From assembly GCA_949130485.1 (NCBI GenBank), contig OX422194.1:5096699-5160698 (forward strand): a DNA stretch of 64,000 nucleotides, in the 5' to 3' direction. The notes under the pieces were generated by a model. The model was not told the origin of the DNA. It was given only the letters and a program-made list of their open reading frames with translations, and made no database searches. Numbering within the stretch: position 1 is the first letter of the stretch; every line of letters starts with the position of its first letter. Source of the DNA: Agelas oroides (taxonomy: Eukaryota > Porifera > Demospongiae > Agelasida > Agelasidae). Below, piece after piece: positions 1-37,053 of this stretch. Made by a program: the position numbers and the translations under genes.

Positions 1-840
1 CCTGGACCAGCTGTATATGTGGTAGTTACAACATTGGATGATGGTGAGTGTCACAGCTGGTGTGCTAAATATTGAGATGGGCATATGTGTTCATATAGTT
101 TGTCTGCTCTATTGTCTAGCAATGTTGTTTCAGTTGAGGCTGAGTGGGAGTGGATCTGAGAGACTGTCAGGAATGAGTTGTAAGTATTAGTTCTTGTGAG
201 TGGATTATCGGTCATGATTCATAAGAGATTGTACCATGATGTGTGGGTGGATGAACAGTATGGTTGCTTCTTACGGCATTCAGTAACGTGTGTAGAAATC
301 ATTAGCAATGGTACTCATCTATGTGTGGGTAGTGTGTATGGGAACATGTCCTTAATTCATGTAATCATATCCATCTAAGTGCTTCAGGGTACAAATTCCA
401 TAGAAACTACAAAACACTATCTGCAGGATGTTACTATAAATGCAAAATTAAATGACATCACCCATGGAGTTGTTCAGGATATAAATCAACTCTGCCAGTG
501 TGGACTCAGTGCAGAACACATCACTGCATGAAGGTGCATTTCAGTGTTTTGAAAACTCGGAGCAGCAGGTGACATTTCGTGCAAGGTTGCATGGAACTGC
601 CCAGTTGACTAGCTCACAGCTGGTAGCATATTTGGAAACGTTTGTTGTGCAAACAGACTCCACCATTGTTGTACAAGGTTTGTGTCTGGATGTGGACAGA
701 AGCTGTCCCGTAGTCATCAACACTTGGTGACCCACAATGCACTTCAACAACCACAGCTGACAACACTGAAGCCATCATCGGTGGAGTGGTAGCTGTGATA
801 GTAATTATGATTTTGGCTGTGACTGTAATCATCATTATAA

Positions 841-1437
841 AAGACTTAAAAAACATTAAAAATGTAAAAAGATGTAGGGATGGCATGCCAAAAAGTATGC
901 AAACAAGGTAGGGATAATGCATGAAAGCAAAGGTCAACATATTGGCAAAGCCCCATCCCTACATCTTTTTCACACTACAGTTAGTGCATGGGGGTCTTCC
1001 TAAAACGTACCACAAGTTCACAACCTTTATTACTGGCAGTTCATGGCTGTAGCCTCGTTCTCAGGTCACCTCCTTCTCCCACATGGCCTGGTAATGAGGC
1101 TAGTATGACCCTCTTGGTAGCATTATGTTATACGGAACCTCTTCAACAACTTAAGCAGTGAGTTGGAGTAGACTGCAGACTTATGATAGTGTCGTTAAAG
1201 TACATGGCATGGTTTTAACCTCGTCCCCAGGCCACATTCCTTCTCCCACATGTTGGCTCAGGGACGAGGCTAATATGATCTAGCAGCATTGCATCAACTG
1301 TAGTGTGAAAAAGATGTAGGGATGGGGCTTTGCCAATATGTTGACCTTTGCTTTCATGCATTATCCCTACCTTGTTTGCATACTTTTTGGCATGCCATCC
1401 CTACATCTTTTTACATTTTTAATGTTTTTTAAGTCTT
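841..1437. repeat. 142-bp perfect inverted repeat with 313-bp spacer
   Basis: Bases 841-982 and 1296-1437 are exact reverse complements over 142 bases by direct reading; the bases on both sides of each arm do not pair. Each arm contains a small hairpin element with ends aaaaagatgtagggatgg and its complement. The spacer (983-1295) contains two degenerate copies of the CCTCGTTCYCAGG / GAGGCTA hairpin family. The left arm begins in sequence that continues the transmembrane exon of gene A, so part of a gene fragment has been copied in inverted orientation. Confidence 0.9.
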
Positions 1438-6053: not shown

Positions 6054-6204
6054 TAATGACGTATGGGGCTAATGCACATTTTCACACAGACTCTACCACA
6101 AGCGACGAAAGCTGGGCGGTCTCCTGGGAACGACGACGAAGTCAGTACGTATAATCTTACTGTTTTCCAAATATTTTACTGGATGGTTGGTAGGGTCTGA
6201 AGGC

Positions 6205-6335: not shown

Positions 6336-6460
6336 ATAGTCTGATACCATTGAGTGTACATATATATACATGTACACTCAGTGTATATAGCTATACACAG
6401 CAAAAACAACTATATGTTTTCAATTTTTTTTAAGTGAATAGTCCAAACTCTCCTGATAGT

Positions 6461-6517: not shown

Positions 6518-7927
6518 TCCTGATAGTCACTTGTTGTGGTCTTTAGACAGCAATGCTAAGTGATGCTGGAGCTAGGAAATTGGTTGATCTTTTGCTACAA
6601 GAAGGAACCAGCTAAATGGAGTGATGTTGCTAGGTCAGGAAATGAAACCGTTACCACCACACAGTGTGAAGCATATGAGTTAGCAAAGTTAGGCCATGAG
6701 TACGAGGACCTCTCTGTGTATCAGAACTCAGAATACGAGGTCTCCAGCCCCAGAGGGTCCTCATGTACCTACCGGAAAGTCTGGAGAATGAATGAGAACG
6801 CATAATATTATCATGTACTTGCTTTAATGAATTACTTATAAGTTGTCCGAAATTGTAGCTGAGTTAGACATCGAAAATTATACAGTACTAGAGATGCTCA
6901 GTACAGCAGCTTACACCATGCATGTCCATGTAACAATTGACTTAGTGCTATATTCACCCTGCATTTATATAGTTATTAGACCATTGTGTAATCATTTAAG
7001 TGTACATGTACATTTACAAAAATTTTTTTGATGTAGTATGTTTATTCAAGCAGATTGCACAGGACGGCCTATATTGTTTTCTGTTGCATCTTTTTGAGGC
7101 AGATAAAGTTACATTTCAAGTGTAATTATACCAGAGGCACATTCTGCCAGGCAAACAATACAAAATGGGTAAACAAACTTTTACAAAACACTATACTCAC
7201 TATAAACCACAGCTTCCATCGCAGTGAACTATCTGCAGCCAGTAATTGATGTGTACGCATTATATGTATATGTTACAAAACAGTATACGCCTTCGGCTTG
7301 TACTATTTTCAATGAGACCCTGCATGCATGGTTGAGTACTATTAGTGATCCCTAGATGGAGCAGCATGGGCCCAGTAAAATGCTGCTCCGTCTAGCTGGC
7401 TCCGGGGATGACTGATTTGTTGTTCTATGTCTATGACCATCTCCACCTGCTGTAACTCACAAGCAGTAGCAATGTCAATTTTGGACTGGGTCGCGACTGT
7501 GCGATCTCGCCTACAATTTCCGGGACGAGACGGAATGAGGCGTGACTGCGGTTACGTAGTCGTAATCCACGACCACGGGACGGTAGACGTGACAAGAACG
7601 GCAGGTACATGCATGTACATTGGCTCCTTTTGTTAAGTTATGTCCAGGAGATTTGCACTGTGGTACACACCATGTGCAGAGGTGCGTGATATATCTGTGG
7701 TAATTTTTGTTCAGGGTTTTCATACAATAATGGTGCCTTGGCCAGGGGATGCATTCTCTAATGAATGCCGTCTCCACGAGGTGTAGGGAAATCATACTAC
7801 AAATACATGCACTGTGTGTCCCTAAGAGATTGAAGCTCTTTAGTGTCACTGGTAGATGACTCTTGATTACACAAGTACAGCCGGTTAGGAAGCAGCAAAT
7901 GTAGATTTGATATACAGACATCTTCGG

Positions 7928-9386: not shown

Positions 9387-12300
9387 ATGGCACTCCTGGG
9401 TCTATTCTCCCTTCTCCTGGTGGTGTGTTGGAGTGGACGATATGTTGATGGGCAAGAAGGTTAGTGTTTGTGTGATGGTATGTACATGTGGAAAAATAGG
9501 ATAGATGTTTGTGCATGAACCTATGTGCTATGTGTGTGATAAGTGTGTAAGCTTTGGACACGAAGACAACTGGGACCGAATTGGAATTGTGAAGATATAT
9601 GGTGTACCACGTAACTGGAGTGGGAGTGTGTCAAGTTTGGTGTGCCAGGTATGGCAACTATACATCATTTTCTGTTTGCACTGGTGAAAATTTTTGGCAC
9701 AACATCATTGTTTACGAGTCCCTACTGTCGCCAGTAGTAAGTAACGCCATTAATACTAATTCCATGTTCTCATGCCAACTGACTGTACCTAAGAATATTG
9801 TACCAAATTCTTCTTTTTTCATTGGTGAGAAGTCTGGTGTGTTGATTGTGTGAGTGTTTGTTCCTGTCGCAATGAGACTAGTATGTTGATTCATGGACAC
9901 TCTTTGTGTTCACTGTCTCTTCCAGTCTTCATGTATACACAAGTAATTATTATTGATGCACACCATGTGGCTGCATAGGAGTACCACTGGAGAGCTACTG
10001 CAACTGTGATGTAAAAATCATTTTGTGTTTGTCATGTGCTATAGGAATTGAGTTAATTCTGAATATGACGCAATATAATAACAACAGTGTTGTGACCATC
10101 ACGGATGTTGGAACTGGTAGTGCTGCTCTGCTCTGCACAACTACCTACCAAGCCTGCTGTTTATCCACTGATGGGTCTCAGTGGTACTTTCCTAATGGAA
10201 GTGCAGTCCAACGTTCTGAGTCTCTGCCATACTACAGAACTAGGACTTTTTTGGGTAGTGGAACAGTACGTCTCAACCGTAACCCTGGGGCAACCACAAC
10301 AGGAGTCTTCCACTGTGACATACCTGATGCCAGTGGAGACCTTCAGAGCATCTATGTGGGGATGTATACTGCCACCACAGGTGAGTCCTGTAGCTACGTT
10401 GAAAAGCTACAGCTTTGTTATAGCAAGAGCCCATTATCATACTCAAGTGAGAGCCTTTTGAAGTACAATCTAAATATAAAACATCTCACACTGGTGCAAA
10501 TGTGAGCACAATACAATTTTCAGTGATGGAGCAACACAATCAATGCTGATTTCATAGCTTATCACAGCACACAGACCATGCATGTAACTTTAGCTACAGG
10601 GTTTTGTCACTAACCTTTGCGCATATTTGCAAGCAGCCTACAAGGTCAACTCACTGTGTGAGGCTGAGAGCTGGGATAAGGACATTTGTGTGAACAAGCC
10701 AGGCTGCTTAGAGAATGTAGATGGCAGCAGAACTGCTGTAAAGCGTGATCTAAATGTACTACCCTCAGCAGTGTTACATTTTGCCTTGGCAATCCCCACA
10801 TTTGTTAACATTACTTTAGAGTCCATTCGGATGATTATCATGCATCATCAATTTTTTTAGGTTCCCTCCATGTAACAAACCTGGTTTATGATAGTGGGTC
10901 CAGAGCTCTAACCTGCACTTCCACTGGTGGACCTGCTACCACTGTCACCTGGATGAAGGACGGGGTTGTGATAACTCCCAATGCTGTCTACCAACAGACC
11001 AAGAGAGTAGTTGATCCTGTTGCGGGTACTTACCAGACAGTGCTCACCATTGACCCGTCATTGAGTCAGAGTGACATCGGGGGATTGTATGAGTGCACAG
11101 TGGAGAATACAAGGGGACGATCATCAGTGACTCGGATTGTAGCTGGTAATGGTGAGTTGATCCCATGCATGCACTATTCGTTGGCATAGGATGATAATGT
11201 ACCACCGTCAACTAATTATTTTAATCTGGTTACACTGTCAAATGTATTTGACTGAAGTGAAACACTTGTCAATTGTGCTATGATTCTACATGTCCAAGAT
11301 TTTCAACAGATATCCAAAGTAGTCCTGAATGTTCCAAGATGTCCTGAAATTTCTCTTCACTGCATTCTGCACATCCTATCCCATACCAAGGGATGGTCTC
11401 TCCTATTGGTACATGAGCACATGCAGTACATTGTACTGTGCACCAAGCACTTAGCTAGACCTATATCCTTACACACAATTTATGTATGTAAAGAGAATTT
11501 AGATGTTAGTGAAAAGGCCAGCAGCCGCTGGGAATCAAACCCAGGACACTGGTTGTCAGCACAAGTAGGTAATGATGTTATATCTGAAACTGTAAGTTTG
11601 GCCTTTCCTCTTGTAGTCAGTTTCTGGCTCAACGGTACAACATACCAGAACAACAGTCTTGTGACCCTGGAGAACATTGGTGAAGGTGATGCTGCCCTTC
11701 TCTGCCTGACCGACCAACCTGCTTGTTGCCGACCACCTTATACTGGGTCTGCCATAGGAAACTGGTACTTTCCCAATGGAACTTTAGTTCCTAACACTGC
11801 TATCCAGTGGGACTTCCACAGAACAAGAGGTCAGATGATGGTGCTTATGCATCGCAGGAGAGGTGGAGTGACTGGAATCTACTACTGTGAGATACCTGAT
11901 GCAATGAATGTTACTCAGTCCATATACATTGGAGTGTTCACAGAAAACACTGGTGAGTGGTACTTGTATAAATGGTAAAACGTACTTCCAGATAGTCATA
12001 CTAATGTGCTAATTAATTATTAGACATCTAATTGTGTATTACACTTTTCCAGACAGTCATTAGTTGAAAAAAGCCTTGATGGTAACATTTAAAATGCAGA
12101 ACTTGATGTTACAAAAGTCACCCATTTGGCCAGGATGTGTTTCAGCTGCGCAATGCAAAAAATCTTTGCAACACTACTTAACAATTTAATAGCTGGAGCC
12201 AACTCACGTATTCAAATGTTGTAACTTTTGACCTCCCTAATTACTATATTGTTGCATCTTAATTTCATTATGAAAGATATCACTGTTACACTGGGTTGTG

Positions 12301-15300
12301 GAAATGGGTTACGAGGATAACATAATTATACACATCTTAAGAAATGAAGCTGTTTTATGAAATGCTTTTCAGATTTGTGGTACGGCTTCTCCACAAAAGA
12401 CTCCTTCTATATATGTGAAAAACCTTGTGCTTTTAATAGTATGTTACCTAGAAATACTGGAAAAGAGCTTGCTGTGGTCTTCTGGATCTTTGTTTAAGTT
12501 TTCCAAAGTGTCGTATATTTTATTGTATGTGTGAGTAAATATGCTGTTCAGATGGGATTTTACTAGGAGAGCCACTATTCCTGTGTGAGTATGCATTGTG
12601 GAGTTTGCTGGTTAGTTACACATAGCATTGTGCATTAAAATTTAGTGACTATAGTGGCTAGTATCAAGAAGGTAACATTTCTAGGTAATTTGTATTAGGC
12701 CTAGATTATTAGTTTCTCATCCCTGCACGCATGCTTCTGGCACACCCACCTACTGCTTGCAGTCTAGTTTTGCTCACGCTGCTGCTTGCTCACCCAGGGT
12801 TTACAGTATATGAAGAAACGTGATAATATTGAATATAATTATCTCCCAACTGCTTCTGTTTTTGTCAGGAAGTGGGTGAGAAAATGATAATCTAGTTTGC
12901 CCATTTCAGATTCTGTGCCACAAAGTTAAAAGAAGATGGGAATGAGGCTAGCACTGTGATAGCATCATGGGATTTTGCATTGTTTTCATGGAGGCTAATT
13001 AGTACATGCAGGAGTTCATAACAATGAGAGTGTGCAACTTCCATATGGTTTCTACACCTGCCATCTGGATAGGATGATGTAGACAATCAGCAGTGAATAT
13101 GCTTATCAGGTCATGAAGCCATTCTAGGTGCTAGTGTACATTAGCTATGGGAACAATGTAGCAAAAGCCCCGCCTCTTTACTGCTGTGTTTTCACAGGTT
13201 ACAATATTCACTGCTGATTGCCTACGGCATGCTATTCGATATAGAAACAATACAGGAGTTGCACACTCTCTTACTGTTATAAACTCTTGTACATGCAGGA
13301 ACAAATGATGGAAATTGTTTTTGCAAAGATGTGCACGAGTAAAAACTGGCCCAGCTTATAGATACATACTGTTGCATTTTTTGTCTGCATCTAATAAAAT
13401 TACTAATTAAACTTAGTTGTTAGGCCATTTTCACCATGTATGGACACTAATAGAACTTTGTTGCACTATCAGTTCCTCAACATAATCTTAGTTTACACTG
13501 ATTAGGATATCACTTGTGTATATACAAATAGCATGCAGTTGTATGTCGAGTGGGGGAGCACCAACACCGCTGGCACATCGATGTTCAAAATTTCACACAT
13601 ACATAAAGTGTGAAGTTAAAACATAAAGGGAGATGGGGATGGGGCATTTATGGCTTAGATGGATGGGGCATTTTATGGCTTAAATGGGTGGGTGGGGCAT
13701 TTATGGCTTAAATGGGTGGGGCATTTTATGGCTTAAATGGGTGTGGTATTTATGACTTAAATGGGTGGGGCATTTATGGCTCAAATGGATGGGGCGGTTA
13801 GTTACTGTTTTTTGGGAGATATGCTCAAAAAATACTGGTCTTCAGGGGAGTACCCTTTCCGGTCCTCGCATGACCACGGGTTTCGGTCCCTTTGAACTCC
13901 CGACCCGTGGCCTACTACAGAAAGGGCGGGACCACTCCCCGCCTAAGGTTTGCTTTGAGGAGCCCAGCTTTTGGTTGGCACATAGTGCTATGGGCATTCA
14001 CAGTGCTATAAATATTCAAATAACTAAACAAATTGGGGGTGGGGCTCAATGGGTGGAGTTATCATATTAACTTATAATAACTAGGGGGATGGGCGAACGG
14101 TTAACGTACGGGATTCTGGCTCGCTATCGTGTCGTCTTGGTGGAACGTCTGGGAGGCTTGTTCTTCGCTGGTAGGCGCTCCTGTACCGAAGATAATTCGG
14201 GTCTGTACTGCGGCGACCATCTCACGGTGAGTATTATTAGTTGTTTGTGTGTGATACTCGGTCGACGGGCTTTAAATGGGAGCGTGCTTCTCTTAGTAAC
14301 GGCGTACCTATCCTAGTAAGCTGTGCTTTTTCCATGTTCAGTGGACTACTTAATGATAACAGATAGTTGTGTGAAATGTGGAAAAGATGTGTGTTCTCTA
14401 AGCCATAGTCTACAAAGCTTGCAGTTTTACAGATAGCATAAACTACTTGGTGTATGGTAGCTAGTCTCCCCCTTACCACGTGTGTGAAGATTTACATTTA
14501 CCTTCAACAGGCCAGGTTACTATCCCAGGTGAAATCACCTTCCAGTTGCACACAGACCCAGCCACTGAGCCCCTTGTGTTCACCCTCACCTGCACCTCCA
14601 CTGGTGGTCCTGCCACCACTGTCTCCTGGAGGAGGGATGGCACACTGCTCAGTGATAACAGCATGTACAGTATCACTTCTCAAGTGACAGATGCAGAGAC
14701 AGCCACCTACACCCACACACTGACAGTGACTGGGAGACTGCTGGGAGAGTATCAGTGCAGTGTGTCCAACATCAGGACACCTTCAGGAAGTACCAGAAGC
14801 CTAGCTGTTGGTAAGGGTATTGGTATATAGCATGGCTTATGCATGTCAGTGTAGTAACAAATATATTTACTAGCCAGTTACAGTTGTATTACCTGTTACA
14901 ACTGTAATGGATCTAAATCCACAGGGGTTGCTGACCCACCAACTGGTCTCAGTGCTACCCAAGTAAATTCCACCAGTATCAGAGTCTCCTGGACTACACC
15001 AGACTCAGGACCCACTGTGACTGGGTACAGGATATCCTACAGTGGAGGGACTGACCAGGGCAGTGTGGATGTTGGAGCTAGTGCAACTGACCACAATATA
15101 ACAATCACTCCACCACAGAGTCGCCTGACCTACTCCATCAGTATCATCACTCTGTCTTCTAGTTTTCCAAGCTCCATGGCTGGGCCCATAATGGTGACAG
15201 TAGGTAAGCACAATGCTTAATTGTTCATTCTATGTTCTAAACTCTATGTTGCACCTCTCTAACCCATACTAACCTACCACTGCTGTCACACCTGGAACGA

Positions 15301-16670
15301 CTGCAGACCCTGTGAACAGTAAGTGTGCATGTGTACTGCATGATACTGTAATGATGTCTTATCCTCTCACAGTTGTCTATGAGTTTCAGAATGTGCACAC
15401 GGATGTATGCATGTGTACTAACCGCTTCCATTTCTAGTTCCTGGGCTGGTGAGCTCATTGAGTGTCACCAATACCTCACTACTGATCACCTGGGACCCTC
15501 CCCTCACACCAAGTGGTGACATCCTTGTCTATGAGGTTCACTACCAGGCAGAGGGAGGACGGGAAAGTGGGGGAGTGGTGAATGTCACAGCCACCTCCGT
15601 AGAGTTGACTGGCCTGAGACCAGAGTCCACCTACACCATCTCAGTGAGGGCCTACACAGCTGCTGGGCCCGGGGAGGAGAGAAGACTGACAGTAACTACT
15701 TCCAACATCGGTCAGTTGTGTTTGCTGTATTGGAAGTATTTCTACATCTTGTGCTCCAATTAACCAACTTGTTAACCATTTAGTTACCTGCTAATCAGTT
15801 TTTGAATTGCTACAGACATCTTGTGCAGTGGTTACTCTACATAATGTCTAGGCCTGTCCATTTTCTACCGGGAGATCTAGCTAGTTCATGGGTTGTTCGT
15901 GCATTGGAAGTGAAAATTGATTATGTTAATGACGTTCAGTCAAGTTTATGTACATAAACCATTTTTACTAACATCATCTCTACAAGGAATGAAATCTGGA
16001 TCTCTTGTTGGTGCATTTGTGGGCGTTTGTGTTGGCATAACCCTGTTCTACACTGTGGTTCTCCTTGTGCTGATTTGTGCACTGATCCTTTGGAATAAGA
16101 GACACAGGTAATGTTCATCTTGTAAAATACCTGTGCATAGCCTTCCCCATCTCCAGTTCTTGATCGTTTGCAGTTCTGCAACGTAGGGCCAGCCATTTAT
16201 ATATTATGTATATAGTTGGCCCAAACATCAGTGCAGCAGATCACATAGTAAGACCTTCTCACTCTGCATGTCAAACACAGGAGATAAGAGGGTCCTGAGA
16301 ATGAGACTACTTAACTGTGCATGCTTTGTAGGTATGCACCAACTTTCACTATTTCTGCAGGCAGACAAGAAAAGCTGACACACAAGAGAGACATTTGGTG
16401 TTAGTTGAGTCCTTGTACCATTCATCCTAGCCTTGTTCCCAGGTCATTTGCACTTATCACTAAAAATTAATGTAGTCAGTTCACAACTTGCTGTATATAG
16501 CTAAAAGTGCAGTACCCAAACTCATGCCATTATTAATCAAATATCCTGGGATTGAAGATGTAGCTCTGTTTCCCACCCACAGCACTGATATTGTGATGAA
16601 GGAGTGTGCTGCCTATGGAGGAGTGACTGCCCACAGTCAGATGGAGGACGTGTATGAGAGTCCTCAGTGA
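9387..16670 (+). CDS. Gene B: Ig(V)-Ig-Ig(V)-Ig-FN3-FN3 single-pass receptor
   Basis: This is a predicted cell-surface receptor of 698 residues. I propose nine exons: 9387-9459, 10045-10380, 10861-11151, 11617-11952, 14511-14810, 14925-15203, 15438-15710, 15987-16107 and 16583-16670. All have GT-AG borders and the total (2,097 nt) closes in frame at TGA 16668-16670. Exon 1 is a signal peptide (MALLGLF ... VVCW). Exons 2 and 4 (336 nt each) are V-like Ig domains with ALLC, an ACC pair, WYFPNG and YYCEIPD/FHCDIPD. Exons 3 and 5 are second Ig domains (LTCTSTGGPATTVTW or close variant, then YECTV/YQCSV). Exons 6 and 7 are FN3 domains. Exon 8 is a transmembrane helix (VGVCVGITLFY onward) ending in a basic stop-transfer (NKRHR). 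The tail is short, with ECAAYGG and DVYESPQ tyrosines. Domain exons are all phase 1-1. No kinase domain is present; ligand and function are unknown. Confidence 0.82.
11520..11570 (-). repeat. tRNA-like (SINE-type) fragment
   Basis: On the minus strand the motif ctgggtttgattcccagc resembles a tRNA T-arm with a B box (GGTTTGATTCC) inside a perfect short stem. The rest of a cloverleaf could not be drawn, so a tRNA-derived SINE remnant is more likely than a functional tRNA. It lies just upstream of the second V-like exon of gene B. Confidence 0.35.
13007..13297. repeat. Imperfect inverted repeat, about 94-bp arms
   Basis: The arms 13007-13100 and 13204-13297 are reverse-complementary with scattered differences; shared strings include gagagtgtgcaact and caatcagcagtgaatat. 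The spacing and length fit a MITE-like palindrome in the intron. Confidence 0.6.
13631..13796. repeat. Minisatellite, about 27- to 30-bp unit
   Basis: About six tandem units of the type tggggcatttatggctta followed by gatgg/aatgggt lie here, with small length variation between units. No coding potential is seen. Confidence 0.85.
15307..15318 (+). CDS. Possible 12-nt microexon of gene B
   Basis: The sequence ctgcag, 12 nt, then gtaagt lies between the two FN3 exons. It would insert four residues (D-P-V-N) in phase 1-1 and keep the frame, giving 702 residues. The acceptor has only a weak pyrimidine tract. It cannot be decided without transcripts. Confidence 0.25.
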
Positions 16671-16696
16671 ATTGACAATAACACTTCTATAAAAAC

Positions 16697-20000: not shown

Positions 20001-21312
20001 GGACAACCTTCTATTAATTCTTCTATCACCTTCAACCTTACATCGGCTGTTCCACCATCATTCACCCTTGGTTGTGTATCCACCAGTGGACCTCCCACAG
20101 TTGTGACTTGGACAAGGGATGGTATTCCTGTACCCATGGATAGCAGTCATGTGCTTACTCAGACTCTGGTGAACTCTGTGACAGCTACCTACTACAATAA
20201 TCTGACTGTGAATGGGATATTCCCAGGCTTGTACAGGTGCACTGTGACTAGTATTAAACCAGTGATTGGTGAAAGACTGAGTGCCTCTCAGGATGTTAGT
20301 ATAGCTGGTAAGTGCAATCAGTATCCTAGTATGTGTTTTAGTATTTTATTCAGGGTTGTGCTTTTATATAGCCTCGTTCCCAGGCCACTCCCAGATTTTA
20401 TCTCGCAGCGGTGAAGACTGGTTTTTCTTCACAGCTGGAGCTATGCATTAATTGTGCGTGCTTTCAAGAGTGAACTCTATAAGGACCCTTCCTCGTTATT
20501 AAAAAGATCACATTATGCCAGCTTGCAGGTTGTGGGATTATGTATGGCTTCCCCTCTCTCATCACAGCTGCTGATTCACCCACCAACTTACTTGCTATGC
20601 AAGCTAGTCCTACCAGTATCACAGTCTCCTGGACTGTGCCCCTCTCAGGAGCCACAGTGACTGGGTATCAGATAAACTACCAGTCAGAGAGAGAAGAAGG
20701 CAGCGTGAATGTTGGTGCCAGTGAAGCTACTGTCACTCTTGATGGTCGTTCACGTGGTTTGACATACAACATCAGTATACTAGCTCTGTCTCAGCAGCTA
20801 CCAAGTCCTGTGGTTGGTCCTGTGATAGTTACTCTTGGTGAGTCATTGAACAGCTCCTGTTCCATTGTTATTTCTTCATTCAGTGATCAAGAGTGTGAGA
20901 CAGAGTGGCAGCAGCCCACATCTGACTCTAACCTCCCAGCAATAATTGGTGGAGCAGTAGGTGGGGTAGTGGCACTGATAGTCACTGTGCTGATTGTGGA
21001 TCTGGTTGTGATTATGATAAAGAGGCATTCCACGAGGTATGAGCCATCCTGTCACAGCACAGCCATGCTGCTCCAAAATTGTTATTAACCAAGTTTTGTA
21101 CATACTCATACAGGAGGCCAAAAGAGCAGCCAGTGAAGTGGAGTGAAGTAGCTGAAACTGAAGAAACTTTTATCCCCACCAAAGAGTGTGCAGCATATGT
21201 GAAGACAGCTCCCCAGCAAGGGGCATTGGACTATGAGGTGCCCATGACACAGTGTGCTGCCTATGAAACTAGACCAGCTGATCCTTTGTATGAGAATGCT
21301 ACATTGTCATAA
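17090..21312 (+). CDS. Gene C: Ig(V)-Ig-FN3 single-pass receptor with fused juxtamembrane exon
   Basis: This is a predicted receptor of 466 residues in five exons: 17090-17168, 19486-19827, 19996-20307, 20568-21036 and 21114-21312. The sum (1,401 nt) closes at TAA 21310-21312. Exon 1 is a signal peptide (LFLQLLLCSYL). Exon 2 is the V-like domain (NVHC, TDCC, WYYPNG, YHCELPD). Exon 3 is a second Ig domain (LGCVSTSGPPTVVTW, YRCTV). Exon 4 starts as FN3 (TSITVSWTVP, TGYQINY) and runs without an intron into the last part of the membrane-proximal module (SCSIVISSFSD), then the transmembrane helix and KRHST. The tail has KWSEVAE, ECAAYV, LDYEVP, CAAYE and DPLYENA. At the fusion the former donor gtgagt (20838) is read as coding. 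Compared with gene D it lacks the second FN3 and most of the membrane-proximal domain. Confidence 0.8.
17169..19485. other. Intron 1 of gene C, nothing recognised
   Basis: About 2.3 kb follow the signal-peptide exon. Open frames are short and show no family motifs on either strand. A and T runs occur near 17875-17895. No clear mobile element was seen. Confidence 0.5.
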
Positions 21313-22995: not shown

Positions 22996-23054
22996 ACCAA
23001 CTGACTATCTATTGCTTACATGTCACAGTTTTGCTTTAGATGATGAAAACAAAT

Positions 23055-23342: not shown

Positions 23343-23347
23343 CAAAT

Positions 23348-24950: not shown

Positions 24951-27900
24951 ATGATGAAGCTTCAGTTCCTGGGTTTATTTATAACCCTGATGGTGTGTTG
25001 GAGTAGGCAGTACGTTGATGGGCAAGGTTTGTACTTGTGTAATTACTGTGTGTATATATGATTTTGGTGTCACGAGAGTGACGAGACCAACTCCTGCAAA
25101 ATCAACTTCCACATGGTCAACACTCATAAAATCAACTCTAACAAAATCAACTTCTCACGAGATCAACTCCCGCGAGATCAGGAGTGCACAATGCAACTGC
25201 TGTCATCTTCTGCACGAAATGCTTGAGAGTCAGGTCATTGGACTTGTACTCTTCAGCAAGCCCAAGTGATTGAACTTTACGCCAGATTGCTTGCATGAAG
25301 TGGCAGTAGCAGCCTCAATGTCTGTAGCACTGCGAAAAGGTTTAGGTTACTTCAACCATATTTTGGTCACCCCAGTTGCATTCCTTTTGTGTGTGTGACA
25401 CGTAAAGTTCAAGGAATGCTTAAAATTTGAAAGAGTTTAGTTGAGAAGCTTCCCTCTTTTGTTAAATTAGTATCTCCTTTCAGAAAGCCTATAAATCAGC
25501 ATTTCTGGTGAGGTTTGTTGTTTCTTTCTTTGATCTTACACAGCTGCCCCTGGATAGTTCCTTGGTTGCATGGTTGTGGTGGTCAGATGCCAGGAATGTA
25601 GCCAGATAAGTCTTCTGAAAGATGAGGCTAACTAATGGAACTGAAAAAGCTCAATGAATATTCAAGAAAACCTATTTGGTACCATTCCTTGGTCACACTG
25701 ATGCAACACAGACAACCTAATATGGTTGAAGTAACCAAGTGTTTTTGCTGTGTAGCATTTGAATAAGTGATGAAGCTTGAATATTGGCTAGCTCGAAGTC
25801 ACACATATGGAATGTAGGATCAAGGGTTAGCCAAGGTTCAAGGCAGCATCTTTCAGAAGCATGAAAGCACGGTTGTAAGATTGTCGTTGCTTGTTAGAAG
25901 CAGAGCATAAATTATGGAGAAATTCTGGTTGTATTTCATGATGTGGATGGTAAACCGCTGATAGACACACTTGGGTTCTCTAAGTATTCTTTGGTGTACT
26001 CTTTGATTTATGCCAAAGCTTATTTTATTTCTGTAACCAGTAGTTTACTTACCCAATTCTAAAACAAGAGTTGAACTCGCAGTCTTGTGAGAAGTTGATT
26101 TCATGAGGGTTGATTTTATGAGAGTTGATCGCATGGGAGTTCATTTCGTGGGAGTTGATCTCGTGGGAAGAACCCATTATACATTTTACTGGTGTTGACT
26201 TAGCCAATCTTTATAAGGAAGTGCAGGTTAAACAATTTTTCTCCTAAATAATGAGTCATTGCACAAACAGCTAACAAATTTAGCACTGTCCTGAATTTAT
26301 GCTGTGGAGCCATGTGTATCTCCAACCCTGAGGATTCCTGTTGATCCTGACCACTCCTTACTCCATAGCACTGCCAACCTTAAAATTTGTACTTTATGTG
26401 TGTTTTACCTTATGCTTCTATGTTTCAAATATTTAGTTTAGGTACTCAACTTTATACTCTAAGCCTGTGGCTCAGGTTTTGTTGCTATTATTATTGTTTT
26501 GTTACTATTATGTTTGGTTGTCCTGGATGTACCAATTATCTAATCCATGGTGTAGTACAGAGTCCAGGTTTTGTACCTACCTATGCATTTGCATATGTTT
26601 TCAATATGAAGACAATGCATGTAGCTTGTGCTTAGTATGCACTCTATGGTGATGCTTGTATTTGGATGCTTTTCAGGTATGTCCCTCAATGGCCAACTCA
26701 TTGCCAACAACAGCATTGTGCTCCTGCAGAGTATTGGTGAGGGTGATGCTGCCCTGCTCTGCACAACTGACAGGACTGCCTGCTGTACAGGTGCCAGCCG
26801 AGTTGGAGAGTGGTTCTACCCTGATGGAAGAATGGTTCCCATCATGACTCCTGTGGGTGGTCCTGAGCCATACTATCGAAACAGAGGCTATTCATTGATT
26901 CGTCTCAACCGAAGACCCAACCAGGGTTTGTCAGAGACGTACACTGGAATCTACTGCTGTGAAATACCAGACCAAAGCAATCTGATCCAGACCATGTGTG
27001 TGAGAGCATATCTCACAGAGAGTGCAGGTTAGTCTTTGTTTTTCAGTTTGTAAACAGGTGTGGATACACTGTGTATATTAGTATTATGTGTGCACCTCAC
27101 ATTACAATTCATAACACTGCTCAGAACTTTGTGTCACCTTGGTGACCTCCTCCCAAGGATTTACCAATAGTACATACTGCAATTTGGCTTCCGCTAGATT
27201 AGATTCATAAAAAATTCTGGAAACTGAGTTTCTTCTTCTGAATTAGATCCATCATTCTAATGGAAGCACATTTTCCAGGAAGGCACTAGCCACACACGGA
27301 GGTCTCCTTACCTCAGTGTTTGTTGCTTCAACTGCCTTCAATACTGAAGGGTTTCCAAGAAGTGTGCAGCTGAGAACTTTAACCATCTGATCCTTCTGTC
27401 TGGCAGCCAATTCTGCCTGTACTTGTTTTGATAAGAACACTGTCTGGGGGGCTGCAACTCGGTTGCTAGTGACTTCACAAGTATTTGGTAGCTAAGCTTT
27501 TCAGGATCAATATGTAACTATTTTCAAAGGACGCTTACCTACCCTACTGCGTTTCGCGGGTAGCGTCTTTGGCTTTTCTTGCTGATAACAAAGTGTAGCT
27601 CCAAAACTGTCTTGATATTTATGAAGCCCAAGGGCTGTGGCACAATCAAGGAAGCGCTCAATAGTCACCAGACCATTTTCCTCGTGAGAGGGTGGGGTCT
27701 GGGGACAAGACTAGTAGCTATTCGCACTGGGCTGTGATAACACTTAGCCGTAGCATTGACGTCTTTAGACATCATTCGTCATTAAGGTAGTACTCCACCC
27801 TGTATTTTCAAGGTTGACAAACCTGGAATCCAAGCTGATAGACTTCTTATAAACTTTTAGTAAACAGTCAATTTTGGGAGTCTTCAACCTTTCACTGTCC

Positions 27901-30900: not shown

Positions 30901-33900
30901 TGTGTTGTATAGGTAGTCTGCTACCAGAAAGTAGTAGCTAATAGATCTAGCTTCTTAAAGATGTACCTGCCTTTATAAAGGCTCCAGAGCTGTAAGTTAG
31001 GATGAAGTTTGTGTGGTCACTGAAGGGTCAACATTTTTGACCATAACTCAGGTTAGCAGTGGTTTAAAATAAATTCAATTTTCTCATCTTTAGCAAATGT
31101 AAGTACCTTCATGCTAAGTTTGGCCACTGTAAAATCCTGCGTCACCATAGGTCCCATTTTGTGATGGCAAATGTTTGGCCCTGTATACTCTCCATGCATT
31201 ACCTCTCAGCCTTTGTGCTTTAACCAAAGATACTTATATGACAATTGTATCTAGCTGTGGTGTCAAGCTTCAGTAAGTCCTCTCAGGCTTGGAAAGAAAG
31301 CATATATTGGACATACATGAGCACTTTTGTGGCTTTTCATTACTATATATTTTTTTCTTTCCACTTGGGGTGTAACAAGGAAGGAGTTTAGTAGAGTGCT
31401 GTAGTGTCATGTAGCTAGAGTGCTGTAGTGTCATGTAGCTAGTGCGTAATGCCTGCTTGTGAAAGTAAGTTTGTGTGCAGAGGCAGCAGAAAGGCCACAG
31501 TGGCCAAGACTGTATTAGTTGAGTAGGCCCCAGGTCTCGCAGTCGTATGCCAAGCCTAGTAGGTGATCGTTGCCTGAGTGCTGGGCTGGGCTTTAACTGG
31601 AATACGCAATGCATGCTCGTGAATGAGCCCCTCCCATAGACAAGCTGTGAAGGTTTTGAAATGTGCATTCATTTTGGTGCAGTCAAAGTTGTCCATTCCA
31701 AGAGTAGTGACAAACATGAGCCTAGCTTGGCTTTGAGAGTAGGTAGCTCTGAACAAAAGCATGGATACACGGTGGTTGGGATGCAACCTACAGTGAGCAT
31801 GTAGATGCATCCATTGAGTGGCAGTTTTGGATTCATGAATATATTAATAAGCTACTATTTAAAATTAGACAAAGCAAGATTGCCCTAAAGCAAACCCTAA
31901 CCCTGAAACTAGCAGTAATCCTGGTCCTGACTGACTGCTGAGTGACCTGCGTGCCACTGACGGACACGACACCATCTGTGTAAGTGATGAAAATAGTAGT
32001 AGCTTGTGAAGGAGGCTAGTGGTTCTGTAAGTGTACACGCTTAGAAGAAATGAAAACACTCGATGACTGTGTTCAGTAAGCTAAACTAGACTACATGGGA
32101 ACATGTCTAAGAAGATGCCACCATCAGGCATTTAAAGAGTGATAATAATTACCTCTCAGTGTATTAGAACTTTGGGGTGAAAGAGGGGGGGGGGGGGGTA
32201 TTTGTTTGAAGTTGGTATATTAGTGAGTACATACAGTATGTATGCAGTCAATTTGGTTGCATTAACTGCAGAACATTAGCTTGCTCCCTTCATTGTGGTT
32301 AGGGTGGAAAGTAAACTTTCCAAGCACTTGAAACCATTTCTGCTTCCATTTCCAAGATGGACTGACCAAGTGATTTGTACTATTTACCTCAGACTACTTC
32401 ACACATGCATAGGCAACTTGTAGTGTATTATAATGACTGCATATGTGGGTTTGCCTCTCACAATAGTAGATGTACTCACTTTTGATGTAGGCTCTGAGCT
32501 GGAGACTGACAATGGTGTGACAGTTACTTGTTTCACTGTCCTTTTGATGTATAAGGTTTTTCAACCCTTCCCTTGTTCTGAGCATGAGAACTCTGTTTTC
32601 TCCCATTTCCCCAGGCATCCCCAGTATCTCAGAGCTGACATTCAATGCTACCACCAGGACACTCACCTGCATCTCCTCGGGTGGGCCAGCTACCAACGTT
32701 ACCTGGAGGATGGGAGGAAGTGAGCTGACGGTGGATGGTTCAACATACCAGTTTATGCAGACCCTGACAGATGGAACTACCTCCACCTACACCAATGTAC
32801 TCACCATTGCCAGCAGTGACCTCACCACCATTTTAGGCAGCACCTTCACATGTGAGGTGGAGAACACCAGGGGAAGAGCCACCATGAATATCACCATACC
32901 ATGTAAGAAACACTATACCGTGTAAGAATAACATGTATAGCCACCTGAAAACAGATTAGAGGTAGTTCCATTCACAAGCTCTCCCATGCACTGCAGAATG
33001 AGGTGGGAGATCTGAAGTATAATTTCCACATCCAATTGTGGAATGACAGGAAAGTACATATCACTGACAAAGATAACCACATACAAAACTGTATGTGAAC
33101 AAAAGCTGTATCTACACATTTGAATACCACCTGGTATACTATAATCGCTTCACACAATGTTAAAGTGCTTAGGTTAAATGCATGGGTGCCTACACCTTTG
33201 TGTGATAAAATGTTAACCACACTATAATCTTGCTTGAGGTCACACACGTGGTAAATGTACCAGGAGAAAACTAGTGCATAGATTATGTAGGCACAATTGG
33301 GGCCTGGATGGAAAGTACTAAATATCAAGTGAGCATACATATATAGGTGGCAGAACCTGTTGGGGGAGAGTGTGGCACATATTTTGTTCGTGGAGGCAGT
33401 GCTGCCACAAAATTTTCAAGTTTACACATAGTCCCACATGTTAATTAGATCATTCCATGCACCGGTAAATAAAGTTTTCTTTTTCCAAAAAAGTACCAGA
33501 AGTGATCTCACATTGCCAGCAGCGACCTAACTCCCATTTTAGGTAGTATCTCACATCAAATTTACCAGACACCTACCTTTCAAATGCTTATGCATTTACC
33601 GTAGTGTCCCTCAAATATGCCCCCTCTCGCGCATAAGCCCCCCTGCATTTTTAGCGCAAAGTCTTGCAGAGGTATTTTTATCCCGCGCATAAGCTCCCCC
33701 CCCCCCCCCCCCCCAGGTAAGGTTGGAGAGGTGCTAGAAAGTATAAAAACAGCTGACTTAATCATTTGCTGTCTTCGCAGAGATGTCTACTCCTTGTCGA
33801 AACTCCTACACAGTCAGGTTCAAGGTCTCTGTGGTGGAATGGCAGTGCAAGAATGAAGCCAGCATCCACAGAACCGCTAAACATTTCTCGATCGATCGCA

Positions 33901-36900
33901 AGCGTGTTCGCGAGTGGTGTCAAAAGTACAGTCTGCTGAAAGGACAAACCTGTGGAGCACTTGAAAAGTGTTGCCACCTTTGCTGTGGCAAACCCCTCTC
34001 GGTTGAGCTTGAGCTTATGTGGTAAGGGAGGGTGTAATCGCGAGAGAAAATGTCGCATCCCGCGTATAAGCCCCCCCTGCGCTTTGTACTAAGGCTAAGG
34101 TTGCAAGAGGGGGGGGGGGGGGGCGTATTTGCGGGACACTACGGTACTTATTAATCCTGTCACCTCAATCTGAAGGTCTTTCACTGTCTTTGTAATATAA
34201 TACAACTTTCAAACAAGAAAGCAAGCAAGCTACTAAAAACAAACAAAATAAACAAATACAATATGATAACATTCTATAGCTGCTTGGTCTTATCAACTAT
34301 ACCAAACTCCTATGCATGTAGTTGGTCCTAGTGAGTACCTGCTACTTACATAGGACTCTGCTTAAGGGACAGCTCTCAACAGCGAACACCCATGATATAA
34401 CGGACAATTCCAAATGTCCCGACTGTCCTTCCATTCACTTCAATACTTAAGCAACCCCTGAACAGTTGACACCCCACTACTCTGTATAATGGACAGTTTT
34501 CGTGGTCCCCATTGTATGCAAACAATACTTAACGACCCCAATTTAGTGGACACTCTTCACCGTTTCAGCAAGACTGTCCACCATTGCTGCTGAATTTAAC
34601 AACTTGACATTAGATTAGCACTGTTACTCGTAATACTAGCCTCTGCTTAGACTTCCCTGCTAGCGTACAGCAAGAGAAAGCTCTGAAAACGTAACCACAT
34701 TGTGCTGAACAGCCTGATTAAGCAGTACCATGCCTACTGGAAATATACCGGAAGTGAGGGACACCTCACCATAAGGGATTGGTCCCAATGGTGTCTTCTA
34801 TAGAGGGGGTTCCACTGTAATAACGTGTATTCATGTTATTCTGTCATTTTGGGGAGCTACAAATGACTGTTTGTGAAGGCCAAAATGTCCTTTGTTCAGA
34901 GAGTAAGAACAAATCAGACACGAACAGCATAATTATTGTGTACACCGTTTCATTTTGCAGTCTAAAGGTGAACACTTGAAAAATTCGCCTCCCTGCTACA
35001 CGTGGTGAAATCATCATCTAAAAAAATTGCTGCTGTGCTTTGCATGGCACAACATGGCCTCTACACTTCCAATTTGCTTCCTACGCTACGCATTCAGTGC
35101 ATGTACACCCAGATTTCAGTCAGATAACCAGGAAGGTATGACAACCTGCGTAAATGATGAAACTTTCAAATAATATATTAAGCCTTATTTCCAACACTTA
35201 AAGGTACTGGTCAATGCTGAACAAACAACTGCACTGAGTTCATGGTACTCTACTATTGCATGCATGTTCAGCCCCCTCTCCTCCAACCATCATCACGGCA
35301 GTCTCCCAGTCTCCCACATCCATCACCCTCATCTGGACCCAGCCAGCTGAGGAGGTTGTGGACAGCTATGAAGTGACATTCTCCTACCAGGGACCTTGCA
35401 GTGGGTTCAACCACACCAACACCACTACTGTGAATGGTACTACCAGGCAGTACACACTGACAGGACTGCAGGAGTTCAGTAACTACACTGTGACCATCAC
35501 AGCAGTAAACATTGCTTTACAGGCTGCAGCTATGGAAACCATCACATTGAGCACCACTGCTACAAGTGTGTTCTACCATCATACTCTGTATGTTGGTGTA
35601 CCCTCATGTAATGCACTGTGCCTTTCTCTCAGTCCCCAGCAGTACACCCCAGGGAGTCACTTCACTCACACTTAATTCCACTGCCTTCTCTGTTTCTTGG
35701 GATCCTTTGGGGTGCATTCATCAAAACAGTGAGATCACAGGGTACATAGTTCGCTATGGGCCAGCATCCAGCAGTACCAGACTCACTTCTGCAGTGTTGG
35801 GGACTACCTCTACTGAGAGAGTATACACTGCAGTTGGACTGGCACCCTCCACAAACTACTCCATTGAAGTGGCAGCGGTCAACAGAGAGGGAGATGTTGG
35901 ACCTTTTACTGCTGCCATTTTTGCAACAACAGTTGTGGATGGTTAGTGTACAGTGATCAATATATATGCAGCTTAGGCCACCTTAGCACATAATGATAAC
36001 GTCCATATATTTCTTTCTGATATAGCGATGCTGTTTCAGTTACGTTTGAGTGGTGTGCATAACTGTGGGGAATGGCAGGTAATGTATCATTCACACAGGG
36101 AGGAACAAATTGGTAGAAAATCGTTGCTCTACTGATGAAATTACGTATATGCTGATGTGCATTACAAAATTTATAGCGTGAATTTTAGTCTGTATAAGGT
36201 TACTGCATTTGGGATAACTCAAATTGGAGCTTAGAGTGTGGGTGGCTAAGTGATGAGATGATAGCCCTTGAGTGAATGTCTCGTACTGTGAATGAAACTT
36301 GGTTGTTATTGTAGTTGAGAGATTTACAAAACAAGCTGGTTGATGTGACCACTGCAGTTCAAGAGAACACTGAAAATATTTGTCAGTGTGGATTCAGTTT
36401 GCAACACATCTCTGATAGCACTTTTGAGTGTTCTTCGAACCCTGATGAAGTGACATTCAGAGCCAGACTGCATGGAACTGCACAGGCCTCAAGTTCACAG
36501 CTGGTGAACTTTATTGAACAGTGGAGTACCAGGGATGTGACAATTGCAGTCCGGGGGCTGAGACTGCGAGTGGACAGCTCCTGTTCCATTGTTATTTCTT
36601 CATTCAGTGATCCAGAGTGTGAGACTGAGCGGCAGCAGCCCACATCTGACTCTAACCTCCCAGCAATAATTGGTGGAGGAGTGGCTGGGGGTGTGGCACT
36701 GATAGTCACTATGCTGACTGTGGGTCTGGTGGTGATTATGATAAAGAGGCATTCCACTATAATTCATCTTAAGCAGTAAGACGGTGATTGTTCACAACAC
36801 AGCCATGTCGCCCAAACTTGTTAATTAGCTGATACAGTTTTTGTACACATACCCATACAGGTCGAAAGAGCAACCAGTGAAGTGGAGTGAAGTAGCTGAA

Positions 36901-37053
36901 AAAACTGAAGAAACTTTAATCTCTACCAAAGAGTGTGCAGCATATGTGAAGACACCTCCCCAGCAAGGGGGATTAGACTATGAGGTGCCAATGACACAGT
37001 GTGCTGCCTATGAAACTACACCAGCCAACCCTTTATATGACATCGTAAACTAA
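24951..37053 (+). CDS. Gene D: Ig(V)-Ig-FN3-FN3-membrane-proximal domain receptor
   Basis: This is a predicted receptor of 674 residues in eight exons: 24951-25026, 26677-27027, 32615-32902, 35272-35565, 35633-35941, 36026-36078, 36315-36775 and 36861-37053. The total (2,025 nt) closes at TAA 37051-37053. Exon 1 is a signal peptide almost identical to that of gene B (VCWS, YVDGQ). Exon 2 is the V-like domain (GEGDAALLC, ACC, WFYPDG, YCCEIPD). Exon 3 is a second Ig domain. Exons 4 and 5 are FN3 domains (LIWTQP; FSVSWDP). Exons 6 and 7 form a membrane-proximal domain with CQC, FEC, FRARLHGTAQ, SCSIVISSFSDPEC and then a transmembrane helix (AIIGGG, basic end KRHST). The last exon is the tail: KWSEVAE, ECAAYV, LDYEVP, CAAYE and NPLYDIV (an NPxY motif). 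The exon 1 donor is the non-ideal gtttgt. It is the fullest member of the cluster. Intron 2 contains an opposite-strand gene. Confidence 0.85.
25066..26175. mobile_element. Putative DNA element with repeat-built inverted ends
   Basis: About 115 bp at each end consist of degenerate short units (aaaatcaactc, gagatcaactccc). The two ends are inverted relative to each other (25066-25190 and about 26055-26175). The interior of about 850 bp has no recognisable transposase; parts of it resemble 41560-41860. It lies in intron 1 of gene D. The exact ends and target duplication are unclear. Confidence 0.5.
27194..29718 (-). CDS. Nested opposite-strand gene, 216 aa, unknown protein
   Basis: I assembled seven exons on the minus strand: 29718-29693 (ATG), 29653-29607, 28671-28546, 28472-28384, 27698-27539, 27451-27312 and 27256-27194 (TAG). 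All borders are GT-AG, the intron phases chain (2,1,1,0,1,0), and the total of 651 nt gives 216 residues plus stop. An in-frame stop lies upstream of the ATG. The protein is mostly polar and helical: SLLEEIFED, WRTEKFVEKIE, then a Ser/Gly-rich linker (KKSHSGGGRGQGF), ENGLVTIERFLDCATALGL, a basic patch (KPKTLPAKRSR), SKQVQAELAARQKDQ, and an acidic end (SNSEEETQFPEFF). No signal peptide or membrane segment is seen, so it is probably intracellular. I do not recognise the family. It lies entirely within intron 2 of gene D. Confidence 0.65.
30016..30311. mobile_element. CAAGGGG palindromic element, copy 3 (296 bp)
   Basis: A full-length copy in the opposite orientation to copies 1 and 2, with terminal CAAGGGGTAGTCACTT and its complement. 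It is flanked by the 5-bp repeat cagct (30011-30015 and 30312-30316). The interior is colinear with copy 2 when reversed. Confidence 0.9.
30317..32614. other. Rest of intron 2 of gene D, no gene recognised
   Basis: No supported coding region. A 24-bp unit is repeated twice in tandem (31393-31416 and 31417-31440) and a run of G lies at about 32187-32198. Minus-strand open frames near 31270-31810 have no protein-like features. Confidence 0.5.
33508..33557 (+). pseudogene. Fragment of the second Ig exon (pseudo-exon)
   Basis: The bases here (cattgccagcagcgacct then ccattttaggtagtatc) closely match the end of the functional gene D exon (cattgccagcagtgacct, ccattttaggcagcacc, about 32803-32853). 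The piece is in the intron, has diverged and lacks the rest of the domain. It is a relic of an exon duplication. Confidence 0.6.
33599..34144 (+). mobile_element. Non-autonomous pogo-like DNA transposon, 546 bp
   Basis: Terminal inverted repeats begin CCGTAGTGTCCC and end GGGACACTACGG, flanked on both sides by TA (33597-33598, 34145-34146), the usual duplication of Tc1/mariner/pogo elements. Subterminal copies of cgcgcataagccccc occur near both ends, next to runs of C or G. The interior carries one short helix-turn-helix frame but no DDE catalytic domain. Confidence 0.85.
33783..34025 (+). CDS. N-terminal helix-turn-helix of a pogo/Tigger-type transposase
   Basis: This is an 80-codon frame with ATG. 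Residues 8-53 (SYTVRFKVSVVEWQ ... RTAKHFSIDRKRVREWCQK) have the pattern of the Brinker/CENP-B-type DNA-binding domain found at the start of pogo and Tigger transposases. The frame ends at TAA soon after the domain, so it lacks the CENP-B second domain and the DDE nuclease. It could bind the element's ends but could not cut. It may be an internal-deletion derivative of a longer element. Confidence 0.6.
   Translation: MSTPCRNSYTVRFKVSVVEWQCKNEASIHRTAKHFSIDRKRVREWCQKYSLLKGQTCGALEKCCHLCCGKPLSVELELMW
34145..35271. other. Intron 3 remainder of gene D with degenerate transposon sequence
   Basis: Bases 34340-34830 contain strings typical of old DNA-transposon ends (agagggggttccactgtaa; repeated tggac/gaca motifs) but no intact ends. 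Bases 34950-35095 are the second copy of the dispersed repeat seen at 6205-6335. No coding region is recognised. Confidence 0.45.
34950..35095. repeat. Dispersed repeat, copy 2
   Basis: Same family as 6205-6335 (ttttgcagtctaaaggtg, ggcctctacacttc, tttgcttcctacg) with an extra segment in the middle. The class is unknown. Confidence 0.5.

What the first reader, a model, noticed from the sequence alone, without database searches (positions are those of the whole stretch)
1..37053. Tandem cluster of Ig/FN3 receptors with kinase-free tyrosine tails: candidate recognition system
Seen: four same-strand neighbours share signal peptide, V-like Ig, Ig, FN3, a membrane-proximal module, a transmembrane helix and tyrosine tails, with different domain numbers, one pseudogene and one exon fusion. 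Established: polymorphic clustered Ig receptors with signalling tails mediate allorecognition in Hydractinia (alr genes) and immunity elsewhere. Inference: this cluster may be a self/non-self or immune receptor complex in a sponge-like animal. No ligand or function is shown by the sequence.
Basis: partly seen in the sequence, partly recalled or inferred. Interest (0 to 1): 0.75.

Follow-up and report, generated by a model that had tools for sequence, protein, structure and literature searches.

The report
Sponge immunoglobulin receptor family, kinase-free branch
This stretch of a demosponge genome holds part of a very large family of cell-surface immunoglobulin receptors whose outermost domain varies most in two short loops and also occurs next to tyrosine kinases; such a family is a good candidate for how sponges tell self, non-self or microbes apart, though no function has been shown.

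Summary
The cluster is real. The window holds three same-strand genes with intact predicted frames: B (696 or 698 aa), C (466 aa) and D (674 aa). Each has a signal peptide, V-like Ig domain, Ig, FN3, TM helix and short tail. Upstream lies a broken relative, A. Two corrections: the membrane-proximal module is whole only in D (broken in A, truncated by the fusion in C, not found in B), and the cluster is a small part of something much larger.

Two capped searches plus gene D's own exon give at least 207 V-like exons, 110 on this chromosome, in same-strand arrays. Silicatein-type exons mark the animal as a demosponge. V exons keep a fixed framework and vary most, with nearly all indels, in two CDR-like loops.

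V exons also lie just upstream of tyrosine kinase domains on C15, C8, C10 and C112, seen in detail at one place. No scored kinase hit lies within 100 kb downstream of the 110 V exons on this chromosome. Kinase-free tails are enriched in YxxL/I/V and YxN.

Best reading: a germline-diversified Ig receptor system with a kinase branch and a kinase-free, SH2-docking branch. Allorecognition is possible but untested; polymorphism, expression and ligand are unknown.

The parts
1..905 (+). Gene A, broken: end of an FN3 exon and a short exon (read by eye), then membrane-proximal module and TM in two different frames with stops
   Evidence: its Ig and FN3 remnants continue upstream at C12:5094778-5096695
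6602..6805 (+). Gene A tail exon (5 tyrosines), separated from its TM exon by a LINE reverse-transcriptase ORF on the other strand
9387..9459 (+). Gene B signal peptide exon
   Evidence: in frame
10045..10380 (+). Gene B first V-like exon
10861..11145 (+). Gene B first Ig exon (alternative donor at 11151)
11617..11952 (+). Gene B second V-like exon; the query
14511..14810 (+). Gene B second Ig exon
14925..15710 (+). Gene B two FN3 exons (14925-15203, 15438-15710)
15987..16107 (+). Gene B TM exon
16583..16671 (+). Gene B tail exon, 29 aa, 2 tyrosines, stop (predicted splice)
17090..17168 (+). Gene C signal peptide exon
19486..19827 (+). Gene C V-like exon
19996..20307 (+). Gene C Ig exon
20568..21036 (+). 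Gene C fused exon: FN3 joined to the C-terminal strip of the module and the TM; compared with gene Z, two FN3 exons and most of the module are missing
21114..21312 (+). Gene C tail exon, 4 tyrosines, stop
24951..25026 (+). Gene D signal peptide exon
26677..27027 (+). Gene D V-like exon
32615..32902 (+). Gene D Ig exon
35272..35941 (+). Gene D two FN3 exons (35272-35565, 35633-35941)
36026..36078 (+). Gene D short exon that brings the frame to phase 0 before the module
36315..36775 (+). Gene D membrane-proximal module (no credible Pfam or PDB match) and TM
36861..37053 (+). Gene D tail exon, 4 tyrosines, stop
   Evidence: (as L039)

Best explanation
SHOWN: a demosponge family of predicted single-span Ig receptors with a V-like domain at the N-terminus that varies most in two loops; at least 207 such exons lie in same-strand arrays; on chromosome C12 (this window) receptors end in a short tyrosine-motif tail without kinase, while V exons on C15, C8, C10 and C112 lie upstream of tyrosine kinase domains (anatomy read at one locus, position only for the rest). 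INFERRED: the V domain binds another molecule through its variable loops; Ig and FN3 domains set the reach from the membrane; on binding, tail tyrosines (YxxL/I/V, YxN) are phosphorylated by a cytoplasmic kinase or by kinase-branch partners and dock SH2 proteins, so that the two branches work as paired receptors with different outputs. Tandem duplication, deletion-fusion and exon exchange keep making new versions. I think non-self recognition (microbes or other sponge individuals) is the most likely job.
For: Family size and arrays: (206 V exons in the union of two capped searches plus gene D's; 110 on C12, which is 3.6% of the genome; of the 206, 179 of 181 neighbouring pairs within 150 kb share a strand). 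Loops: 17 of the 30 most variable columns and nearly all internal indels fall at residues about 39-48 and 58-65 (29 of 33 rows); 39 distinct first loops among 43 exons; in L074, not used to define the loops, units 2 and 3 differ at 13/51 loop bases, 4/297 other V-exon bases, 10/1402 downstream; 17 independent close pairs: loop pN 0.199 against framework 0.063, gap codons 42 against 7. Kinase branch; L073 has four V exons followed by one open frame with TM, tyrosines and kinase domain. No scored kinase within 100 kb downstream of 110 C12 V exons; tail frames end in stops. Tail motifs: 17 of 18 tails with YxxL/I/V against 7.1 +- 2.0 in shuffles, 10 of 18 with YxN against 2.3 +- 1.4. Mosaic exons. 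Botryllus FcoR receptors with a V-type Ig domain and a core motif YxxI/L/V are described in PMC12065747 (passages).
Against: No polymorphism, expression or ligand data. The loops were defined from the variability itself, so the loop/framework contrast is partly circular. Loop pS is raised too (0.216 against 0.099) and loop pN/pS is 0.92, not above 1, so raised mutation, conversion or misalignment near indels could explain much. The L074 pair was picked after seeing it, and its upstream intron also differs (10/266 nearby, far more beyond), as a conversion tract would leave. 13 of the 30 most variable columns lie outside the loops. V fold not confirmed. Strict ITIMs rare. Tails are related by descent, so the shuffle test is not independent. 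Only 129 of 1424 kinase candidates were scored, and within 50 kb upstream a listed V exon was found for 10 of 16 C15, 12 of 20 C8 and 5 of 9 C10 kinase rows entered. Pairing of the branches is inference; in the tree V exons of both fall in one weakly supported group.
Confidence: 0.5

Rival explanations
1. Cell-identity or adhesion code without immune role: many V variants give homophilic cell sorting in development, regeneration or reaggregation, as Dscam or clustered protocadherins do (recalled comparison).
For: V-Ig-FN3 architecture is typical of adhesion receptors; profile similarity to NCAM2; tandem V and V-Ig cassettes could be combined or chosen.
Against: Loop-only divergence between otherwise near-identical V exons and turnover with broken and fused copies are more usual in recognition of changing targets.
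Confidence: 0.22
2. Decoys or modulators of the kinase branch: kinase-free receptors bind the same ligands, or dimerise with the kinase receptors, and damp or redirect their signal.
For: Second V exon of gene B is 73% identical to V exon C15:1404869, which lies in L073 upstream of a kinase exon; both branches in one tree group (8 of 44 rows from kinase clusters, none from C8).
Against: Tails are conserved and rich in docking motifs, which a pure decoy would not need.
Confidence: 0.2
3. Mostly neutral expansion: a duplication-prone, repeat-rich region makes copies faster than selection removes them, and loops vary because they are unconstrained.
For: Broken copies; retroelements and satellites nearby; loop pN/pS near 1.
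Against: Framework pN/pS 0.64 shows some constraint; three of four window genes have intact frames over 5 to 9 exons; 1 of 299 listed V matches has a stop inside, though such searches favour intact copies.
Confidence: 0.13

Closest known systems
Geodia cydonium receptor tyrosine kinase with Ig-like domain (GCRTK) and the kinase-free sponge adhesion molecules GCSAM
   Same: Sponge Ig receptors in a kinase-bearing and a kinase-free form (the kinase is cited in PMC12018476, passages; a Geodia Ig adhesion molecule is mentioned in PMC11999971, passages; the pairing and the names GCRTK and GCSAM are recalled).
   Different: Known to me from single genes, not chromosome-scale clusters (recalled). Sequence kinship not tested: no Geodia sequence was held.
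Botryllus fuhc-locus fester co-receptors (FcoR)
   Same: Clustered receptors with signal peptide, V-type Ig domain, further Ig domains, TM, tail with core motif YxxI/L/V (PMC12065747, passages).
   Different: FcoRs have a sushi domain and can have ITIM or hemITAM; here FN3, no sushi hit, strict ITIM in 2 of 26 tails.
Hydractinia Alr family
   Same: Clustered V-set/I-set Ig receptor family of 41 genes (PMC11999971, passages), with ITIM/ITAM motifs reported (PMC12065747, passages).
   Different: No FN3 in Alr (recalled); fewer copies; no kinase branch known to me; fusion genetics known there, nothing here.
Sponge aggregation factor
   Same: Candidate sponge allorecognition system (PMC12065747, citing Grice et al. 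2017, which I did not read).
   Different: Extracellular proteoglycan complex (PMC11999971), not a membrane Ig receptor.
Vertebrate paired Ig receptors (KIR, LILR; recalled)
   Same: Clustered, mosaic, related ectodomains on different signalling tails.
   Different: Pairing there is ITIM tail against adaptor use, not tyrosine kinase against kinase-free.

Membership tests
Immunoglobulin superfamily (V-like exon) | Ig residue pattern C...W...GxYxC and profile similarity to solved Ig domains | tested here: met
   Cysteines and glycine invariant, tryptophan and tyrosine nearly so in 33 rows; PDB profile, whole-chain E 6e-6 NCAM2 (best stretch 0.0068) and 2e-4 zig-8. Against: not significant
Immunoglobulin superfamily (V-like exon) | V-set fold | tested here: inconclusive
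   Pfam V-set hits 2 of 33 members, best E 0.044; AlphaFold pLDDT 42
Receptor tyrosine kinase (window genes) | Cytoplasmic tyrosine kinase domain | tested here: not met
   Frames end in stops after short tails; no scored kinase within 100 kb downstream of 110 C12 V exons (129 of 1424 candidates scored)
Receptor tyrosine kinase (C15 relative, L073) | TM followed by a tyrosine kinase domain in one frame, V exons upstream | tested here: met
   PF07714 E 1.3e-84; HRDLAARN and DFG motifs, TM-like run; V exons. That they form one transcript is inferred
Hydractinia Alr | ITIM or ITAM in the tail | tested here: not met
   Strict ITIM in 2 of 26 (gene B read unspliced, and L054); ITAM-like spacing in 2 of 26 (L047, L048); no strict ITIM in window genes A, B (spliced), C or D
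Hydractinia Alr | Extreme polymorphism and linkage to fusion or rejection | not testable with these tools
   One assembly only
Botryllus FcoR | Sushi domain in the ectodomain | tested here: not met
   No sushi hit at E up to 1 in the joined exons of B, C and D
Geodia GCRTK / GCSAM | Sequence homology of the Ig-like domains | not testable with these tools
   No Geodia sequence was held
Dscam-type alternative exon arrays | Mutually exclusive splicing of tandem exons | not testable with these tools
   Geometry fits (tandem V or V-Ig exons, each with its own acceptor and donor), but no RNA data
SEA domain (membrane-proximal module) | Pfam SEA match | tested here: not met
   SEA is not among the 24 families listed at E up to 1 for 27 members; AlphaFold failed (pLDDT 35)

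The most novel reading that the evidence does not exclude
A germline repertoire of more than 200 V-type Ig exons in a demosponge, diversified in two CDR-like loops and shared between a tyrosine-kinase branch and a kinase-free tail branch, works as a paired recognition system for self/non-self, with tandem V or V-Ig cassettes chosen or combined by splicing to widen the repertoire.
Probability: 0.22. Interest if true: 0.95.

Novelty: new variant of a known kind. Interest (0 to 1): 0.74.

Why it matters
The receptors of sponge graft rejection and of sponge-microbe discrimination are, as far as I know, not identified; the sponge candidate named in the review passages I saw is the aggregation factor work. 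A large Ig receptor family with loop-focused diversity and two signalling branches gives named loci to genotype against graft outcome, to profile after allogeneic or microbial contact, and to express for binding tests. If true, germline-diversified V-type receptors with paired signalling would reach back to the base of the animals.

Tried and rejected
AlphaFold of the V domain (4 window rows) and of the module (2 rows) gave pLDDT 42 and 35, so no fold search was run. A SEA-domain reading of the module, my impression from its pattern, was dropped as unproven. Strong positive selection on loops was expected but not supported in the pooled pairs. The idea that the window was a self-contained locus was dropped. 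The idea that the whole family is kinase-free was dropped. Use of the old FN3 donor in gene C to skip the TM would break the frame (phase 1 into phase 2; reasoned coordinates). Ten paper searches, of which I saw the listings, and passages of six papers, showed no description of this family; the library is open-access only, so this is weak evidence of novelty.
Full report
What the window holds. The window is C12:5096699-5160698 of a 259 Mb assembly with 141 contigs. Exon reading with splice sites and phases gives three uninterrupted genes on the + strand. Gene B (9387-16671) is signal peptide, V, Ig, V, Ig, FN3, FN3, TM, tail: 696 or 698 aa depending on one donor. Gene C (17090-21312) is signal peptide, V, Ig, FN3 fused to TM, tail: 466 aa. 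Gene D (24951-37053) is signal peptide, V, Ig, FN3, FN3, short exon, module plus TM, tail: 674 aa. Most junctions between extracellular exons are phase 1, so cassettes can be added or lost without breaking the frame; the exception is the short exon before the module in gene D, which ends in phase 0. These are predicted splices; no RNA was available. Gene A, at the left edge, is broken: its module needs two frames and contains stops, its tail exon at 6602 survives, and its Ig and FN3 remnants lie upstream of the window.

The neighbourhood. Forty kilobases upstream (L069-L072) hold gene Z (V-Ig-FN3x3-module/TM-tail), gene Y (V-Ig-FN3x3, no TM found) and a V-Ig-V-Ig stretch X. Gene C matches Z at about 90% over V-Ig and 94% over the first FN3; its fused exon then matches Z's TM exon 2 kb further on, so C looks like the product of a deletion that removed two FN3 exons and most of the module, leaving an open frame. 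Exons disagree about who is closest to whom: the Ig exons of Y and Z differ at dS 0.013 but their first FN3 exons at 0.209, while that FN3 exon in C and Z differs at 0.044. That is the pattern of exon exchange between neighbours, from few sites.

The scale. The second V exon of gene B finds 150 scored matches out of 340 candidates, the weakest at E 1.1e-40. The V exon of gene C, from a distant subfamily, finds 149 matches, 150 of 321 candidates scored. The union is 206; gene D's own exon is in neither list and makes 207, a lower bound. Of these 110 lie on C12, between 1.76 and 8.83 Mb; others lie on C15 (35), C8 (17), C10 (13), C1 (12) and eight further contigs. Of 181 neighbouring pairs within 150 kb among the 206, 179 are on the same strand. 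The Ig exon gives 150 scored of 455 candidates, the module 126 matches of 144 candidates, about three fifths of them on C12 by my count of the listing, and the tail 43 matches of 47 candidates, 40 of them on C12.

The animal. A search with a silicatein-like stretch gave 15 matches; of three places read, two carry the silicatein-type active site (CGASYAF, CGASYVF) and one is an ordinary cathepsin (CGSCWAF). That silicateins are sponge enzymes, typical of demosponges, is established knowledge, not a call. The species is not identified.

The V-like domain. Thirty-three exons align with a fixed framework: a cysteine, then an invariant CC pair, W-F/Y-F/Y-P-N/D-G, R-T-R, G-I/V-Y-x-C, P-D. Pfam does not name it. 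A profile reaches NCAM2 and zig-8 Ig domains in the PDB, which makes it an Ig domain by sequence; a comparison with the family's own Ig exons was not significant and structure prediction failed, so V-type rather than I-type is unproven. Among 29 of the 33 rows (the four most distant dropped) 17 of the 30 most variable columns and nearly all internal indels fall at residues about 39-48 and 58-65, where loops between strands B and C and between C' and D would lie; the other 13 are scattered. Of 43 exons with a readable first loop, 39 loops are distinct.

How the loops change. On C12 at 8.78 Mb, V-Ig units of about 2.3 kb repeat in tandem (L074). Units 2 and 3 differ at 13 of 51 loop bases, 4 of 297 other V-exon bases and 10 of 1402 downstream bases; units 3 and 4 are nearly identical where they could be compared. 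The pair was chosen after seeing it, its upstream intron also differs (10 of 266 bases nearby, much more further up), and a conversion tract could look the same. In 17 independent close pairs from 44 held exons, loops have pN 0.199 and pS 0.216 with 42 gap codons, framework pN 0.063, pS 0.099 with 7 gap codons; the loops had been defined by their variability, so this contrast is partly circular. Loop pN/pS is 0.92 against 0.64. So loops diverge faster, but the pooled data do not show positive selection.

Two signalling branches. The kinase search, answered at the sixteenth attempt (143 matches, 129 of 1424 candidates scored), places tyrosine kinase domains inside the V clusters of C15, C8, C10 and on C112. 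In L073 four V exons are followed about 0.5 kb later by one open frame with a TM-like run, several tyrosines and a full kinase domain (PF07714 E 1.3e-84; closest solved kinases DDR2, DDR1 and Trk). That these form one transcript is inferred. A same-strand kinase lies within 100 kb downstream of 22 of 35 V exons on C15 (the other 13 are on the minus strand), 16 of 17 on C8, 13 of 13 on C10, 1 of 1 on C112, and 0 of 110 on C12 (62 of the 143 kinase rows were entered; by inspection the remaining rows lie away from the other V exons). In the other direction, 10 of 16 C15, 12 of 20 C8 and 5 of 9 C10 kinase rows have a listed V exon within 50 kb upstream. So the window belongs to a kinase-free branch, as far as the scored hits reach. 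V exons of both branches share a weakly supported group in a quick tree of 44 exons, 8 of them from kinase clusters: three label changes against 7.4 in shuffles.

The tails. Of 26 distinct tail frames, four are the window's own (A, B, C, and D listed as L039); the frames end in stops after 49 to 82 aa, 25 of 26 have YxxL/I/V, 15 of 26 YxN, 2 of 26 a strict ITIM (gene B was read there unspliced and owes its ITIM to that). After dropping eight near-duplicates, among them L054 with the other ITIM, and splicing gene B, 17 of 18 have YxxL/I/V (7.1 expected from shuffles), 10 of 18 YxN (2.3 expected), none a strict ITIM. Related tails are not independent, so these are descriptions rather than tests. 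YxxI/L/V is the core tyrosine motif reported for Botryllus FcoR tails (PMC12065747, passages).

Mechanism and status. Shown: architecture, expansion, loop-focused divergence, co-location of V exons with kinases in some clusters and not in this one, motif-rich tails. Inferred: ligand binding by the loops, phosphorylation of tails, SH2 docking, pairing of branches. Which ligand, self, other sponges or microbes, cannot be decided from one assembly. The sponge papers seen here in passages do not describe this family: the Dysidea NLR paper mentions Ig only with TIR (PMC12909245), the haplosclerid paper notes many immunoglobulin and fibronectin domains (PMC4704026), and individual-specific expression of pattern-recognition receptors is reported in Halichondria (PMC8242945). 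The library is open-access only.

Noticed in passing
48452-64000: 192-bp satellite array, at least 81 copies, reaching the end of the window; 271/275-bp arrays within 43817-47340.
   Followed up: no
37336-41185: Gypsy-type retroelement frames (my reading of the translations) on the minus strand directly downstream of gene D.
   Followed up: no
2958-6068: LINE-type reverse-transcriptase frame of 1036 aa (my reading) on the minus strand, between gene A's TM exon and its tail exon.
   Followed up: no
L073:3523-6212: Four V exons within 2.7 kb, each with its own acceptor and donor, no Ig exon between them, then a TM-kinase frame; alternative or multi-V use is open.
   Followed up: partly
C12:8099670-8118218 (no locus held): Ig exons about 2 kb apart, five with the same score, suggesting another recent V-Ig array.
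   Followed up: no
C15:1.45-1.66 Mb, minus strand (partly L012, L017): 13 V exons in the C15 cluster lie on the minus strand and have no kinase downstream in the rows entered; their tails were not looked at.
   Followed up: no
L075, L077: Silicatein-type exons on C4 and C11; six matches to the query lie within about 40 kb on C11, one of them read.
   Followed up: no
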